Part shown: piece after piece, positions 6,013 to 10,942 of the stretch
Layout: each line of letters opens with the position of its first letter
Numbering within the stretch: position 1 is the first letter of the stretch
IMG/VR virus record: IMGVR_UViG_3300030103_001864
Location: 1 to 24,628 of that record
Length of the DNA stretch: 24,628 bases
Strand: one strand, 5' to 3'
Source of the DNA: a virus
The notes under the pieces: generated by a model
The model's input: the letters and a program-made list of their open reading frames with translations, nothing else
The model's database searches: none
What the model was told of the DNA's origin: nothing
Program-made: the position numbers and the translations under genes

Positions 6013-7637
6013 ACTATATTCTCCTTATCTTCTATTTTTATTTTTTCCTCTGGTATATTTTCTTTCATCAAATCATCAGCAGGTATTTTTAAACACCTAA
6101 CTGCAGGAAATGATTTTTCATTTTCTCCTTTTGGAAATCTTTTTTGAAAACCAAACTCTCCTTTAAAATGTGTTTTAATTAAAGTTCCTGTTCTTGGTCT
6201 ATCTTTTGTCCATTCATTTCTTTTTATCTCTTCGTAAAATTTATCGTAATCAAAGTAATAATATTCATCATCTTTTAATACAGCTCCACTTTTAAACGAT
6301 GCATATGTTTTTGCCTCTGGTCCATTTACATAATCTTCTAAATATTTTTTTAACATTTCTATTGGATTAGTACCAGCAGGTGGTTTAATATCCTCTTTAG
6401 TGGCCCATAGAGCGTCCAGGATAGGCTGATATTCATTATTCTTAATGATAGGAGGAAATATAGATGTTTGGTCTGCTATAAGCGCTCTCATCTCCTTCAT
6501 TTCTGCTATCTTTTTTATATGTTTTGCATGTATCTGAACTACCTTACTGTCAGATAATTCTACGTTAAAAAAATATTCTGGATCAGGTTTGTAATCTATT
6601 TTAATTAAACCTGATATCTGAGGCCAACTGCTTTCTTTATGACTACCAATACCAAACTTTCTTCTAAGACAAGTTCCTTTTGCACAATAAGCAGAGATAG
6701 GTAAGTCATGACATGTATGACCTGCTGTATCTTTGTCCCAACTTTTTATTTTTTCATGTACTTTAGCATCACCCCAAGTGTCATCATATTCTATAAAATC
6801 TCTTGCAGCTTGTAATAATTTTTTCTTCCAATCATCTTTGTGTTTCTTTTTAGTAAACACCATGTAGTTAAATAAAAATCTATCTCTTTCATCTTTTAAT
6901 TTGTTCCCTGATTCCTGAACCTGTTTGCATATCATCTGTAAACATGGAGGACCATCAAGTAAATCTTCTGGTCCACCTGTTAATATTTCTTTTACTTTTT
7001 TATTAGATACTTCTTGTAATGATTCTTTTGTTTGTAGATTATCTTTTACTACGTTTAAAAAATCTTCTAACTCTAATTCTTTTCCGTCAGGTAATAATGC
7101 TTTACGTTCTGTCTTTTTAAAATAAGGTAAATTAATAAATGATCCAGATGTTCTAACATTATCTTGATTCATACCCAGCTGTGTTTGTTTAGGAAATATT
7201 TCTGTCTTTGATGACAGTCCAAATAAAAATAATAAATTCTGCAAAAACTCTCTAATTAAAGTTGCAGGTACTTTTTCTTTTGTAAATACATAAATGTGAA
7301 GGCCATTACTTTTTGATTTGATGGGAACAACAGGAAGATTTTTATCTTCAATTACTTTTAAATAATGTCCAATATCAAAACTAGAATAATCAGATGGATC
7401 AATATCTATTGCTCCAAAGCTAGCCATGCCATTATCATCACATGCTTGTATACCTATTGCACGTTTACCTTCTAAATGATCTTCGTAATCTTTTTCAGAT
7501 ATACTTCTTTTTGACCAACCATAATCACCTGGATCAAATTTTAATTTGTTTGTTTGTGGATCATGGTAGCCATTGTTTACATTACAGAAACCAAAGTCTC
7601 TTTCTAGTCCACTAAAATATTTTTTAAAATCTTTCAT
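6009..7637 (-). CDS. Archaeo-eukaryotic-type primase with PriL-like Cys region
   Basis: This 542-aa protein is a DNA primase or primase-polymerase of the AEP superfamily. The catalytic core has DID (78-80), the nucleotide-binding SNGLHIYVF with H114, and TEIFPKQ (145-151) as the third acidic motif, followed by GSFINLPYF (165-173); this set resembles the AEP domains annotated in TOTE-type systems and marine phages. A helical region with PPC (C232) and later C309, C318 and C323 before RKFGIG resembles the Cys-rich C-terminal domain of primase large subunits and may bind Fe-S or zinc. Residues 340-542 are unassigned, ending with a charged module containing RFPKGENE. No helicase motif is present. 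It starts behind a GC-rich stem-loop that includes its GGAGG. Confidence 0.85.
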   Translation of the reverse strand: MKDFKKYFSGLERDFGFCNVNNGYHDPQTNKLKFDPGDYGWSKRSISEKDYEDHLEGKRAIGIQACDDNGMASFGAIDIDPSDYSSFDIGHYLKVIEDKNLPVVPIKSKSNGLHIYVFTKEKVPATLIREFLQNLLFLFGLSSKTEIFPKQTQLGMNQDNVRTSGSFINLPYFKKTERKALLPDGKELELEDFLNVVKDNLQTKESLQEVSNKKVKEILTGGPEDLLDGPPCLQMICKQVQESGNKLKDERDRFLFNYMVFTKKKHKDDWKKKLLQAARDFIEYDDTWGDAKVHEKIKSWDKDTAGHTCHDLPISAYCAKGTCLRRKFGIGSHKESSWPQISGLIKIDYKPDPEYFFNVELSDSKVVQIHAKHIKKIAEMKEMRALIADQTSIFPPIIKNNEYQPILDALWATKEDIKPPAGTNPIEMLKKYLEDYVNGPEAKTYASFKSGAVLKDDEYYYFDYDKFYEEIKRNEWTKDRPRTGTLIKTHFKGEFGFQKRFPKGENEKSFPAVRCLKIPADDLMKENIPEEKIKIEDKENIV

Positions 7638-7644
7638 AAAATAA

Positions 7645-7670
7645 GGCGCCTCCAGTCTCCCTTCAGCGCC
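7645..7670 (-). promoter_or_regulatory. GC-rich stem-loop overlapping the primase Shine-Dalgarno
   Basis: In the 50-nt gap before the primase, GGCGC and GCGCC can pair as a 5-bp stem with a 16-nt loop. The downstream arm runs into the GGAGG of the primase ribosome binding site (about 7647-7653, 9 nt before the ATG). The heptamer GAGGCGC also occurs twice, at 7646-7652 and 7666-7672. This is a clear GC island in an AT-rich genome. It could reduce ribosome access to the primase message or be a protein site. There is no U-run, so it is not a typical terminator. Confidence 0.4.
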
Positions 7671-7687
7671 TCTGTTATAACAACTTA

Positions 7688-8458
7688 TTATACTATGTCT
7701 TGTTTCTTTTGACTAGCATCATATTTAGGTTTAGCAGTACCTTTAGAAACTTGTTCTTGAAGTTTTGCTGCTATCTCAAATATTGCTGCATCATCTTTGT
7801 TACCCATATCAAGATTTCTTTCTCTTGATGGTTTGTAAACATGCCAGCTTTTGCTGCCCGCAGTTTTGCCAACTGTATTTAATTTATATACAGCTGAATA
7901 ACTTGCAGGATTAAACGGACCTTGATCATCTGTGAATCTAAGATTCTTGATTAGGTTGTTTAACTCCCTCGCCGGAGATAGATTAGAAGATCTCATTGGG
8001 ATTACTGCAGGTTTTGGTTCACCATCTACCAATGCTAATGCATAAAAGTATGCAGTCTTCTCAACATAATTACCGTTTGGTAATCTGTATCTTCCATTCT
8101 TTTCCTCCGTAGCATCAGCAGGAATATCTAAATGTGTTCCTACTGGAGCAGAAGCACTATCGCCTCTCTCCTGCCACTCAGGATACCTAGTTTGAGAGTG
8201 AGCAATTACAACTTGTAATCCCTCTTCCCCATCTATAAGTTTACCAAAACCTGATGCGTAAATCATACCAGGTTTAGCTCCTTCTACATGTTTGGCATCT
8301 CTTTCGTTACACTCTGGAGAAAGTTGATGAAGAATTTTTAAGATCGGTGTCGAAACATCGTCGTTCTTAATTTCCTCTGATCCTTTCCCAGCATGCTCTC
8401 TGAGATTTATTGTTGCTAATGCACCCGCATTAGTCTTCTTTGCTACTTGACTTTCCAT
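7688..8458 (-). CDS. Candidate phage ssDNA-binding protein (256 aa)
   Basis: This 256-aa soluble protein has the layout of a large phage family: an N-terminal tail, then a region with VSTPILKILHQLSPEC (35-50), GAKPGMIYASGFGKLIDG (60-77), GLQVVIAHSQTRYPEW (80-95), then a globular part and a Lys-rich C-terminal tail. Some annotators treat this family as ssDNA-binding, but I know of no direct proof. Position agrees: it lies between a coiled-coil protein and the primase. The N-terminus contains TINLREHA, shared with the upstream protein. Start: AAGGAG lies 5 nt before the ATG at 8458. A two-copy 8-nt repeat precedes it. Confidence 0.72.
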   Translation of the reverse strand: MESQVAKKTNAGALATINLREHAGKGSEEIKNDDVSTPILKILHQLSPECNERDAKHVEGAKPGMIYASGFGKLIDGEEGLQVVIAHSQTRYPEWQERGDSASAPVGTHLDIPADATEEKNGRYRLPNGNYVEKTAYFYALALVDGEPKPAVIPMRSSNLSPARELNNLIKNLRFTDDQGPFNPASYSAVYKLNTVGKTAGSKSWHVYKPSRERNLDMGNKDDAAIFEIAAKLQEQVSKGTAKPKYDASQKKQDIV

Positions 8459-8469
8459 AGTTACTCCTT

Positions 8470-8488
8470 GTTAGTCTGTTAGTCTGTT
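8470..8488 (-). repeat. Two-copy 8-nt direct repeat before the 256-aa gene
   Basis: On the plus strand the 8-nt unit GTTAGTCT occurs twice in tandem plus GTT, 19 nt in all. The repeat contains the stop codon of the 186-aa gene (8479-8481) and abuts the AAGGAG of the 256-aa gene (8464-8469). The same 8+8+3 plan, with a different unit, precedes the 186-aa gene. It is low in secondary structure and may be an mRNA operator. Confidence 0.6.
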
Positions 8489-9039
8489 GATTTAGGTTTG
8501 TTAGTTATCTTTGTTCGATAGCCAGCAAACGTACTGAAATACTCTGAGGGTATCTTACCACCACGTTCGTGGAGATCCCTCAAAGCAACTCTAAGGGTCC
8601 CGGCATTCACTGAAACTTTTTGTTCCGGTTGATAACCTTGACCTTTTGCGAGGTCAGCATATTGCTGCGCCTCGTTGTCTTCGTCCTTTCCAAACCTCAC
8701 TGTGATTTCATTTTTCACAATGTTGCCTAGTCCGTTCTCTCGAAGCCATTGATATGCCTCTGCTCTTTTTGGGGCAAGTGCAGTGGCAAAAAATTTATTA
8801 TCTATTTCTAACTCTGAACCATCTTTTAGTTTCATTGTTTTAAGATTCATAGCAAGCATCATATCTGGAATTATTACTTCAGATAAATAGCTTTCATTTT
8901 CTTCTAGATCTTTAATTCTATCTTTATAATTTTGTATTTCTTGTTGGATGTCTTGAAGTTTTTTTATTTCGTCGGAAAGTTTTTCTGGATCTGTTTGTGT
9001 CACCTGACTAGGTGCATGATCCCTAAGATTTATAGTCAT
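8479..9039 (-). CDS. Coiled-coil phage protein (186 aa), replication-linked, unknown
   Basis: The protein has an N-terminal tail with TINLRDHA (2-9), a charged coiled coil at about residues 18-55, then a globular part with KTMKLKDGSELEI (68-80), AYQWLRENGLG (95-105), a VRFGKDEDNEA segment (114-124), and a C-terminal region ending with PSEYF and a basic tail. This arrangement, including the WLRENG and FGK segments, is a widespread phage family without established function, usually beside an ssDNA-binding-type gene, as here. It starts with AAGGAG placed before ATG 9039 and is the first gene after the strong promoter at 9085-9114, so it should be abundantly expressed. Confidence 0.8.
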   Translation of the reverse strand: MTINLRDHAPSQVTQTDPEKLSDEIKKLQDIQQEIQNYKDRIKDLEENESYLSEVIIPDMMLAMNLKTMKLKDGSELEIDNKFFATALAPKRAEAYQWLRENGLGNIVKNEITVRFGKDEDNEAQQYADLAKGQGYQPEQKVSVNAGTLRVALRDLHERGGKIPSEYFSTFAGYRTKITNKPKSTD

Positions 9040-9048
9040 GTTACTCCT

Positions 9049-9067
9049 TAATAGTTTAATAGTTTAA
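9049..9067 (-). repeat. Two-copy 8-nt direct repeat before the 186-aa gene
   Basis: On the plus strand the unit TAATAGTT occurs twice in tandem plus TAA, 19 nt in all. It touches the AAGGAG of the 186-aa gene (9044-9049). The plan is the same as at 8470-8488, with a different unit, at almost the same distance from the start codon (9 versus 11 nt). This leader is very AT-rich and should be unstructured. Confidence 0.6.
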
Positions 9068-9084
9068 ATTTATATTTGCACTAT

Positions 9085-9114
9085 CGTATATATAGGAGAA
9101 TTTTATGTTGTCAA
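9085..9114 (-). promoter_or_regulatory. Sigma70-like promoter for the replication operon
   Basis: On the minus strand a perfect TTGACA (9114-9109) is followed after 16 nt by TATATA (9092-9087), or after 18 nt by TATACG. The -35 box starts directly after the TAG stop of the 112-aa gene (9115-9117). Transcription would start near 9080 and read into the 186-aa gene and on leftward. It is the best promoter in the window and would let host RNA polymerase drive the replication genes. Confidence 0.65.
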
Positions 9115-9453
9115 CTACTTTTGAAAAATATTTAATTCAATAGGGTAGTAACCTTTTTGTGTTCTATCGTATTTTAAATATTTAAATTTACCGTTTGTCA
9201 TTTCTGAAACTACTGCACACACTACACCAATAATAGCAGGGTCACCATAAAGTAACAAATAGTCATCAGAGGTAAAATCTTTTAAAGAATTTTTTATTTC
9301 TAAAACCAATGGTCCTGGTGAAAACTGCATTTGTTTTAATCTTGGAAACATAACCTTAATTTCGCCATATTTTATTGCAGGGGTAATATCAATTTTAGGT
9401 TGACCTGTTTCTCTATCTAATGGAATGTCTTGTACTAAATAAATTTTGTTCAT
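9115..9453 (-). CDS. Conserved hypothetical protein (112 aa)
   Basis: This small soluble protein has no signal peptide or membrane helix. Its N-terminal half has PKIDITPAIKYGEIKVMFPR, its centre FTSDDYLLLYGDPAIIGVV and its end YYPIELNIFQK, mostly predicted beta with a short helix. I recognise no domain. Proteins of this kind occur beside replication genes in marine phages. It is the first gene of the leftward block, divergent from the SNF2 helicase across a 49-nt gap that holds promoter-like boxes for both directions. The early position suggests a host-takeover or replication accessory role, but no function can be given. Confidence 0.78.
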   Translation of the reverse strand: MNKIYLVQDIPLDRETGQPKIDITPAIKYGEIKVMFPRLKQMQFSPGPLVLEIKNSLKDFTSDDYLLLYGDPAIIGVVCAVVSEMTNGKFKYLKYDRTQKGYYPIELNIFQK

Positions 9454-9481
9454 TGACTTTATACTTTCTATACATTATATA
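9453..9481 (+). promoter_or_regulatory. Divergent promoter region between 112-aa gene and SNF2 helicase
   Basis: Rightward: TTGACT (9453-9458), a 17-nt spacer and TATATA (9476-9481) form a good sigma70-like promoter. It implies a very short leader of about 15 nt before the helicase ATG at 9503. Leftward: the minus strand of 9474-9479 reads TATAAT, a perfect -10 for the 112-aa gene, but its -35 is poor. The two -10 boxes overlap, so the two directions may exclude each other. Also, the rightward -35 overlaps the start codon of the 112-aa gene. Confidence 0.55.
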
Positions 9482-9502
9482 ACTTTTTAGAAAGAAAAGT
9501 AA

Positions 9503-10942
9503 ATGATTAACTACAAATTTAAAACTGAGCCTTATGCTCATCAATTAAAAGCGTTAGAACGTTCTTGTGAAGAAAAATATTTTGCGTATTTTATGGAGAT
9601 GGGTACTGGTAAGTCAAAAGTATTAATTGATAATGCTGCTTATTTATACAATCAAGGTAAAATAAATGGCTTACTTCTTATTGCACCTAAAGGTGTATAT
9701 AAAAATTGGTATGAAGATCAAATACCTACTCACCTACCAGATTATATAAATAAAAAAGTTGTCCTTTGGAAAAGTTCTGACAAAACTATTGGACAAGAAA
9801 AGAAAATAAATTCTGTGTTACAAACTGGTACAGAGTTTCATATTTTAATCATGAATGTAGAAGCTTTTTCATATGATTTTGGTAAAGCATTTGCTCGTAG
9901 ATTTTTAAGTTGTCACAATGCTATGATGGCAATAGATGAATCTACAAGTATAAAAACACCTGGTGCTAACAGAACTAAAAATATTTTAAAGCTAAGAGAT
10001 CTTGCTAAGTACAGAAGAATATTAACAGGTTCACCTGTAACTAATTCACCATTAGATTTATTTAGTCAATGTGAGTTCCTTGAACCCTGGCTCTTAAAAA
10101 CAGATTCTTTTTATGATTTTAGAGCAAGGTATTCTATTATGAAATCTATTAACCTTGGATCTAGAAGTGTGAATATAGTAACAGGTCACAGAAATCTTGG
10201 AGAACTGTCTAGATTAATTGAACCCTTTTCAATGCGTGTATTAAAAGATGATTGTCTAGACTTACCTAATAAAACTTTTATGAAACGTCAAATTACTATG
10301 ACACCTCAACAAGAAAAAGTTTACAAAGAAATGAAAAAATATGCAATGGCACAACTTGATGGTAAAACTTTAACTACTAATAATGTTATGGTTCAATTAA
10401 TGAGACTGCATCAAATTTCTTGTGGTCACTATACATCTGATGATGGAGAGATATTAGATATACCTAATCATAGAGTAACAGAACTTATGGAAATACTTTC
10501 TGAGTTAGAAGGTAAAGCTGTTATATGGTCTAACTATCAAAAAGACGTAGATACAATTATAAAAACTATTAGAAAAAAATATGAGAGTGATGATATTGTA
10601 GTAGACTATTATGGTTTAACACCTCAAGAAGAGAGACAAGAAAATATAAAAAAATTTCAAGAAGATCCTAAATGTAGATTCTTTGTAGGTACAACTCAAA
10701 CAGGTGGGTACGGCATTACTTTAACTGCTGCAAGTACAATGATTTATTTTTCTAATGGTTATGATTTAGAAAAACGTTTGCAGTCAGAAGCACGTATTGA
10801 TCGTATTGGACAAAACTATCCAATGACTTATATTGATATTATCACTGAAGATACAGTTGATACAAAAATTGTTAAGGCTCTTCGTGACAAAGTAAATATT
10901 GCAACTCAAATTATGGGTGAAGATTTAAAAGATTGGATTTAA
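9503..10942 (+). CDS. SNF2-type superfamily 2 DNA helicase/translocase
   Basis: This 479-aa ATPase has the SNF2/Rad54 plan: a Q-like AHQLKALER (12-20), Walker A MGTGKS (33-38), Walker B DEST (145-148), LTGSPVTN (174-181), the second RecA lobe with IWSNYQ (341-346), motif V GTTQTGGYGITLTAAS (396-411) and motif VI SEARIDRIGQ (428-437). Such proteins move on double-stranded DNA and displace bound proteins; in phages they are found near replication and recombination genes. It is the only rightward gene inside 24 kb of leftward genes, with its own promoter-like boxes. Its TAA overlaps the stop of the convergent 72-aa gene. The Shine-Dalgarno is weak (GAAAAG). Confidence 0.93.
   Translation: MINYKFKTEPYAHQLKALERSCEEKYFAYFMEMGTGKSKVLIDNAAYLYNQGKINGLLLIAPKGVYKNWYEDQIPTHLPDYINKKVVLWKSSDKTIGQEKKINSVLQTGTEFHILIMNVEAFSYDFGKAFARRFLSCHNAMMAIDESTSIKTPGANRTKNILKLRDLAKYRRILTGSPVTNSPLDLFSQCEFLEPWLLKTDSFYDFRARYSIMKSINLGSRSVNIVTGHRNLGELSRLIEPFSMRVLKDDCLDLPNKTFMKRQITMTPQQEKVYKEMKKYAMAQLDGKTLTTNNVMVQLMRLHQISCGHYTSDDGEILDIPNHRVTELMEILSELEGKAVIWSNYQKDVDTIIKTIRKKYESDDIVVDYYGLTPQEERQENIKKFQEDPKCRFFVGTTQTGGYGITLTAASTMIYFSNGYDLEKRLQSEARIDRIGQNYPMTYIDIITEDTVDTKIVKALRDKVNIATQIMGEDLKDWI

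What the first reader, a model, noticed from the sequence alone, without database searches (positions are those of the whole stretch)
8464..9067. Twin 8-nt repeat leaders ahead of two adjacent replication genes that share an N-terminal motif
Seen: before the 186-aa gene (9049-9067) and the 256-aa gene (8470-8488) there is an 8-nt unit twice plus 3 nt, exactly 19 nt each, touching AAGGAG at nearly the same distance from the ATG. The unit sequences differ (TAATAGTT and GTTAGTCT), so the plan is kept but not the bases. Known: T4 gp32, an ssDNA-binding protein, represses its own mRNA by binding an unstructured leader. Inference: the candidate ssDNA-binding protein may bind these unstructured leaders and set its own and its partner's dose. 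The repeat in the 256-aa leader also contains the upstream stop, which links termination and re-initiation.
Basis: partly seen in the sequence, partly recalled or inferred. Interest (0 to 1): 0.7.

Follow-up and report, generated by a model that had tools for sequence, protein, structure and literature searches.

The report
Conserved octamer leaders before phage SSB-like gene
In a very common kind of ocean virus that infects SAR11 bacteria, the messenger RNA just ahead of a probable single-stranded-DNA-binding protein gene carries two or three copies of an 8-letter motif whose spacing is kept across relatives while its letters drift, which looks like a landing strip for a protein that controls how much of that protein is made, although no binding has been shown.

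Summary
Both leaders hold an exact 20-nt period-8 tandem repeat ending at the Shine-Dalgarno; shuffled windows give 0.017 such repeats, this one has two. In its clade the 256-aa leader keeps two or three 8-nt units (consensus ARACYAAY), with spacing fixed, letters drifting and distance to the SD varying by 0-3 nt. Copies within a leader are hardly more alike than copies across leaders, so selection on a spaced motif fits better than fresh slippage. The 186-aa leader is weaker and sometimes lacks it. Distant relatives lack it, bacterial genomes show only chance matches, and other genes of the phage do not have it. The 256-aa protein (PF23977) is modelled as an OB fold; weak structural matches are mostly ssDNA-binding proteins, RB69 gp32 among them. 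T4 gene 32 has a similar layout (5-nt UUAAA repeats flush with the SD). Best reading: an unstructured mRNA operator, most likely autogenous, or a translation enhancer; not shown. A separate, covariation-supported hairpin precedes the primase gene.

The parts
9048..9067 (-). Period-8 repeat in the leader of the 186-aa gene: [AAACTATT]x2 running into AAGGAG
   Evidence: TRF, chance estimate, relatives
8469..8488 (-). Period-8 repeat in the leader of the 256-aa gene: [AGACTAAC]x2 running into AAGGAG; holds the stop codon of the 186-aa gene
   Evidence: TRF, chance estimate, relatives
8486..8493 (-). Third, more diverged unit AAATCAAC, 5' of the two exact units, still inside the 3' end of the 186-aa gene
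   Evidence: Register table of units over 37 leaders; 1-mismatch match at 8478-8493
8479..9039 (-). 186-aa gene: Pam3 gp33-like / DUF7307 (PF23984), phrog_2378; long coiled coil plus small domain
7688..8458 (-). 256-aa gene: Pam3 gp34-like (PF23977), phrog_2402; predicted OB-like fold, candidate ssDNA-binding protein
9087..9118 (-). Probable sigma-70-type promoter (TTGACA ... TATATA, seen again in relatives) that would start the mRNA about 45-50 nt ahead of the 186-aa ATG; not flagged by the consensus scan
   Evidence: read; same TTGACA..TATATA in L478 and L415; inference, no mapped start
7638..7672 (-). Conserved hairpin between the 256-aa gene and the primase gene (separate element)

Best explanation
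The period-8 leaders are an array of single-stranded mRNA binding sites, consensus ARACYAAY, laid flush against the Shine-Dalgarno. Primarily they serve the 256-aa gene, which encodes a probable OB-fold ssDNA-binding protein; a shorter version sits ahead of its operon neighbour, the 186-aa gene. When the protein is in excess over phage ssDNA it would bind the array side by side, perhaps one subunit per 8-nt unit, reach into the SD and block the ribosome, as T4 gp32 does on its UUAAA repeats. Shown: the array, its spacing conservation with letter drift, its restriction to these two leaders, the predicted lack of RNA structure.
For: Array conserved across the HTVC027P-like clade: mean lag-8 self-match 0.68 over 39 distinct 256-aa leaders against 0.37 in shuffles (z 19), 0.62 against 0.36 over 12 representatives (z 8.7); best lag 8 or 16 in 38 of 39. 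A is at unit position 1 in 37/37, 37/37 and 36/37 leaders for the three units; the distance from array to SD varies 0-3 nt while unit spacing does not. Copies within a leader are no more alike than across leaders for units -2/-3 (p 0.75) and barely for -1/-2 (p 0.06), which argues against recent slippage as the whole story. 45 of 46 contigs with the exact doubled motif among 2.9 million viral contigs have it directly ahead of one of these two genes. In 50 contigs the 256-aa leader has three units where the 186-aa leader has none by a strict count, so the array belongs above all to the SSB-like gene. OB-like model with RB69 gp32 core at Z 5.1 over 151 residues and SSB or RPA entries filling much of the list. 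Leaders unstructured: 77% of 256-aa leaders with MFE above -1 kcal/mol. T4 gene 32 leader, read here, is TTAATTAAATTAAATTAAAAAGGA: A/U repeats flush with the SD, reported as essential for gp32 autorepression together with a pseudoknot (PMC535899).
Against: No binding or repression data. Structural Z values are below 8, where common folds also score, and the highest row is phiC31 RDF, not an SSB; no sequence relation to gp32 (hhalign probability 0.1%). No pseudoknot-like nucleation structure was identified ahead of the array, whereas T4 needs one. The window's own 256-aa leader has some predicted pairing with the start of the gene (-5 kcal/mol, no better than shuffles). Distant relatives carry the same protein without the array. 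SSBs have little sequence preference, so a strict consensus is not obviously what one would need. The relatives share descent, so the z-scores overstate independence.
Confidence: 0.4

Rival explanations
1. Translation enhancer: a G-poor, unstructured A-rich spacer that lets 30S subunits or S1 land and lets ribosomes that stop at the 186-aa stop restart on the 256-aa gene. The octamers arise by slippage and are kept because they are unstructured.
For: Leaders almost lack G (64 of 1898 letters) and fold weakly. The stop codon of the 186-aa gene lies within or at the edge of the array, and the stop-start gap clusters at 18-21, 24-26 and 32-35 nt, as if whole units were added or lost.
Against: Does not by itself explain exact 8-nt spacing kept with drifting letters, nor why copies are not homogenised within leaders. 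Other genes of the phage, capsid included, do without it.
Confidence: 0.3
2. The array is read by another RNA-binding protein, a RegA-like general translational repressor of the phage or a host protein.
For: The unit has a UAA in most copies; RB69 RegA is reported to select UAA triplets in vitro (reference title in PMC3014915).
Against: RegA-type repressors act on many leaders, whereas this array is confined to two. No RegA homologue was sought.
Confidence: 0.13
3. Frame-independent stop cassette: a unit of 8 nt (not a multiple of 3) that carries a stop puts stops in all three frames just ahead of the SD.
For: 28 of 39 arrays have stops in all three frames against 19% expected from shuffles.
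Against: That follows from any period-8 repeat with a stop. Units that lack both possible stops are not depleted (Fisher p 0.48). The 186-aa leader has no translated gene running into it.
Confidence: 0.05
4. DNA-level element, such as iterons for an origin or operator sites for a transcription factor.
For: Direct repeats at the head of the replication operon.
Against: Position is locked to SDs of two genes, including one inside the operon; the units overlap a stop codon; only two or three copies.
Confidence: 0.07

Closest known systems
T4 / RB69 gene 32 translational operator (gp32 autogenous repression)
   Same: Unstructured A/U-rich tandem repeats directly abutting the SD of a phage ssDNA-binding protein gene; operator letters diverge between related phages while the arrangement is kept (PMC535899)
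   Different: T4 repeat is 5 nt (UUAAA) and follows a pseudoknot; here it is 8 nt (ARACYAAY), no pseudoknot was identified, and a second copy sits ahead of the neighbouring gene; no binding shown
M13 gp5 repression of gene II mRNA
   Same: A phage SSB that represses translation of another replication gene (as cited in PMC535899)
   Different: No tandem octamer array known to me there; protein not compared here
Pam3 gp34-like family (PF23977, phrog_2402)
   Same: The 256-aa protein is a member by Pfam score 143 against cut-off 27
   Different: Family has no assigned function; distant members lack the leader array

Membership tests
gp32-type autogenous SSB operator | Repeated A/U-rich elements overlapping or abutting the RBS of the SSB gene | tested here: met
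gp32-type autogenous SSB operator | Leader intrinsically unstructured | tested here: met
   prediction only:
gp32-type autogenous SSB operator | Pseudoknot (nucleation site) 5' of the repeats | not tested
   no pseudoknot search was run; the sequence 5' of the 256-aa array is coding in the 186-aa gene
gp32-type autogenous SSB operator | The SSB binds the leader and represses its translation | not testable with these tools
   needs binding and translation assays
gp32 protein family | Sequence homology to gp32 | tested here: not met
   hhalign of A1 against T4 gp32: probability 0.1%; no convincing sequence hit among solved structures
OB-fold ssDNA-binding proteins | OB fold | tested here: inconclusive
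   pLDDT 77.8 model; Foldseek best E 4e-3 to RPA; VIA-align Z 5.1 to RB69 gp32 core, many SSB rows at Z 3-4, top row phiC31 RDF Z 7.5
OB-fold ssDNA-binding proteins | C-terminal tip ending in PF or similar (common in cellular SSBs, not in all phage SSBs) | tested here: not met
   array clade ends DIV; HTVC023P- and DSL-LC04-type relatives end VPF / IPF
PF23977 Pam3_Gp34 | Score above gathering cut-off | tested here: met
   143.2 bits, cut-off 27

The most novel reading that the evidence does not exclude
A pelagiphage SSB unrelated in sequence to gp32 regulates its own and its neighbour's translation through an RNA array with one octamer per subunit, an independently evolved counterpart of the T4 gene 32 operator that works without a pseudoknot and whose unit letters drift while the 8-nt pitch is fixed by the protein's footprint.
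Probability: 0.3. Interest if true: 0.75.

Novelty: new variant of a known kind. Interest (0 to 1): 0.52.

Why it matters
How an ssDNA-binding protein with little sequence preference singles out its own messenger is an open question from T4 gp32. An array with a fixed 8-nt pitch and drifting letters, found in dozens of relatives of a cultured phage (HTVC027P on SAR11), gives a natural mutational series that could separate spacing from sequence. It would also be a first regulatory clue in a group of abundant ocean phages whose replication genes are mostly unnamed, and it points to a function for PF23977.

Tried and rejected
Host-type leader: the doubled motif next to an SD-like stretch has 7 matches in 257 billion bases of bacterial and archaeal genomes, about what chance gives (my estimate about 4), none in SAR11, several not ahead of any start codon. 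This tests the exact motif only. Recent slippage as sole cause: not favoured, because copies within a leader are not homogenised, though unit number does vary between close relatives. Stop-cassette selection: no depletion of stop-free units. Known RNA family: no Rfam match in 7500-9600 near its gathering score. Sequence homology of the 256-aa protein to gp32 or any solved structure: none. The 186-aa model gave only coiled-coil matches, so the annotation 'putative DNA ends protecting protein' in DSL-LC04 could not be confirmed. The HTVC027P transcriptome paper (PMC12753301) does not discuss these two genes by name in the parts read. One viral contig (L419) with the motif ahead of another gene is a TTAGTTTG microsatellite contig.

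Full report
What was claimed.

Check of the observation. The repeats are there, exact and 20 nt long each. In 60 dinucleotide shuffles of the window, period-8 exact repeats of that length occur 0.017 times on average. The stop codon of the 186-aa gene is inside the second repeat. The N-terminal motif TINLR[DE]HA is shared by both proteins, and a pattern check of the window and of the first 50 kb of HTVC027P found no other credible gene with it.

Where it lives. The window belongs to a 33-kb virus record whose closest cultured relative is Pelagibacter phage HTVC027P (85% and 87% identity for the two proteins). The two genes head a replication cluster: 186-aa, 256-aa, primase, a 235-aa gene, UvrD-type helicase, a short gene, DNA polymerase A. 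The 256-aa protein is PF23977 (Pam3 gp34-like), the 186-aa protein PF23984 (Pam3 gp33-like) and the 112-aa protein upstream PF23992 (Pam3 gp32-like).

Relatives. Leaders were taken from several hundred viral contigs. In the HTVC027P-like clade (59 leader-protein pairs in the tree) the 256-aa leader keeps two or three units of 8 nt, e.g. AGACTACT AAACCAAT AAACCAAT AGGAGG, AAACTACT AAACTAAC AAACTAAC AAAGGAG, AAATCAAT AAATCAAT AGACAAAT AAAGGAG. The lag-8 signal is far above shuffles and above every other lag, with only its multiple 16 near it. The 186-aa leader carries one well-kept unit and a second, looser one; in a few contigs it has none. In 50 contigs the 256-aa leader has three units where the 186-aa leader has none by a strict count; 14 contigs score zero in both by that count, at least some because the unit next to the SD has diverged (AAACATTA). 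In HTVC023P-, 023Pt_psg01- and DSL-LC04-type phages the two genes nearly touch and there is no array, so the array looks like an innovation of one clade.

Specificity. Of 46 viral contigs with the exact doubled motif plus AAGGAG, 45 have it ahead of these two genes. Within the window and the first 50 kb of HTVC027P there is no further convincing instance. Genomes of bacteria and archaea give only chance-level matches.

Selection or slippage. If the arrays were young slippage products, copies within one leader should resemble each other more than copies from different leaders. They do not, or hardly (6.08 against 5.86 matches of 8, p 0.06; 5.62 against 5.70, p 0.75). Meanwhile the distance to the SD varies by 0-3 nt but the pitch stays at 8. 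This is what a reader with a fixed step would impose. Relatedness of the leaders means that the p values and z-scores are indicative only. Unit number does change between close relatives, so slippage probably supplies the variation. For the 186-aa leaders the -1/-2 units are more alike within than across leaders (p 0.001), so some homogenisation or shared descent cannot be excluded there.

The protein. AlphaFold2 on a 42-sequence alignment gives a model of mean pLDDT 77.8. Foldseek against the PDB ranks RPA first (E 4e-3), with WHY2, CST, Pf3 SSB and SsbA among the next rows. VIA-align puts phiC31 RDF first (Z 7.5), RB69 gp32 core second (Z 5.1, 151 residues), then BRCA2 OB domains, CST, T4 gp32, PRD1 SSB P12 and many SSBs at Z 3-4.5. 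This supports an OB-like fold and fits an ssDNA-binding role; it does not prove it. There is no sequence relation to gp32. Distant members end in VPF or IPF, like the protein-interaction tip of cellular SSBs (general knowledge); the array clade ends in DIV.

Mechanism. T4 gene 32 is the closest parallel: its leader, read here from the T4 record, has ATTAA repeats flush with AAAAAGGA, and those UUAAA elements together with a pseudoknot are reported as essential for gp32 autorepression (PMC535899). The leaders here share the layout but with an 8-nt unit and without an identified pseudoknot. I therefore favour an mRNA operator read by the 256-aa protein (0.4), with an enhancer or restart spacer as the main rival (0.3).

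A second element. Between the 256-aa gene and the primase gene nearly all clade members keep a hairpin, GGGCGCC-GAA-GC-GAGA-GU-GGA-GGCGCCC in its common form, ending just ahead of the primase ATG. It is supported by covariation: 59 cells with changes on both sides against 20.5 in shuffles, covariation score 0.471 against 0.156, and at most 0.142 in slid controls (fold_alignment). The window copy folds at z -3.2. A covariance model finds it once in the window and once in HTVC027P at strong E-values, and not in the stretches of distant relatives searched. Rfam has no match in this region. Upstream of it lie a variable hairpin and a short palindrome (GTTGCAAC, CTTGCAAG or GTTATAAC). This may be a separate control of primase and may be the more structured half of the operon's regulation.

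Noticed in passing
window 7638-7696, - strand: Conserved structured RNA between the 256-aa gene and primase: G/C stem with a GAA/GGA internal loop and GAGA tetraloop, strong covariation in 35 relatives, no Rfam match; preceded by a variable hairpin and a short palindrome (GTTGCAAC / CTTGCAAG / GTTATAAC).
   Followed up: partly
window 8479-9039 and 7688-8458: The two adjacent proteins share an N-terminal TINLR[DE]HA motif seen in no other gene checked; perhaps a common docking peptide.
   Followed up: partly
256-aa protein C-terminus (window 7691-7705): The clade with the leader array ends in DIV, while array-free relatives end in VPF, IPF or TPY like an SSB tip.
   Followed up: no
L419, viral contig IMGVR_UViG_3300018080_000684: About nine tandem copies of GTTAGTTT and, further on, inverted AAACTAAC copies next to an SD: the same octamer as a microsatellite in an apparently unrelated contig.
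   Followed up: no
structure model mdd207579de57 against PDB 9teh_I: The 256-aa model's best structural match is the phiC31 recombination directionality factor (Z 7.5, 154 residues), hinting that this RDF may share an OB-type ancestry with phage SSB-like proteins.
   Followed up: no
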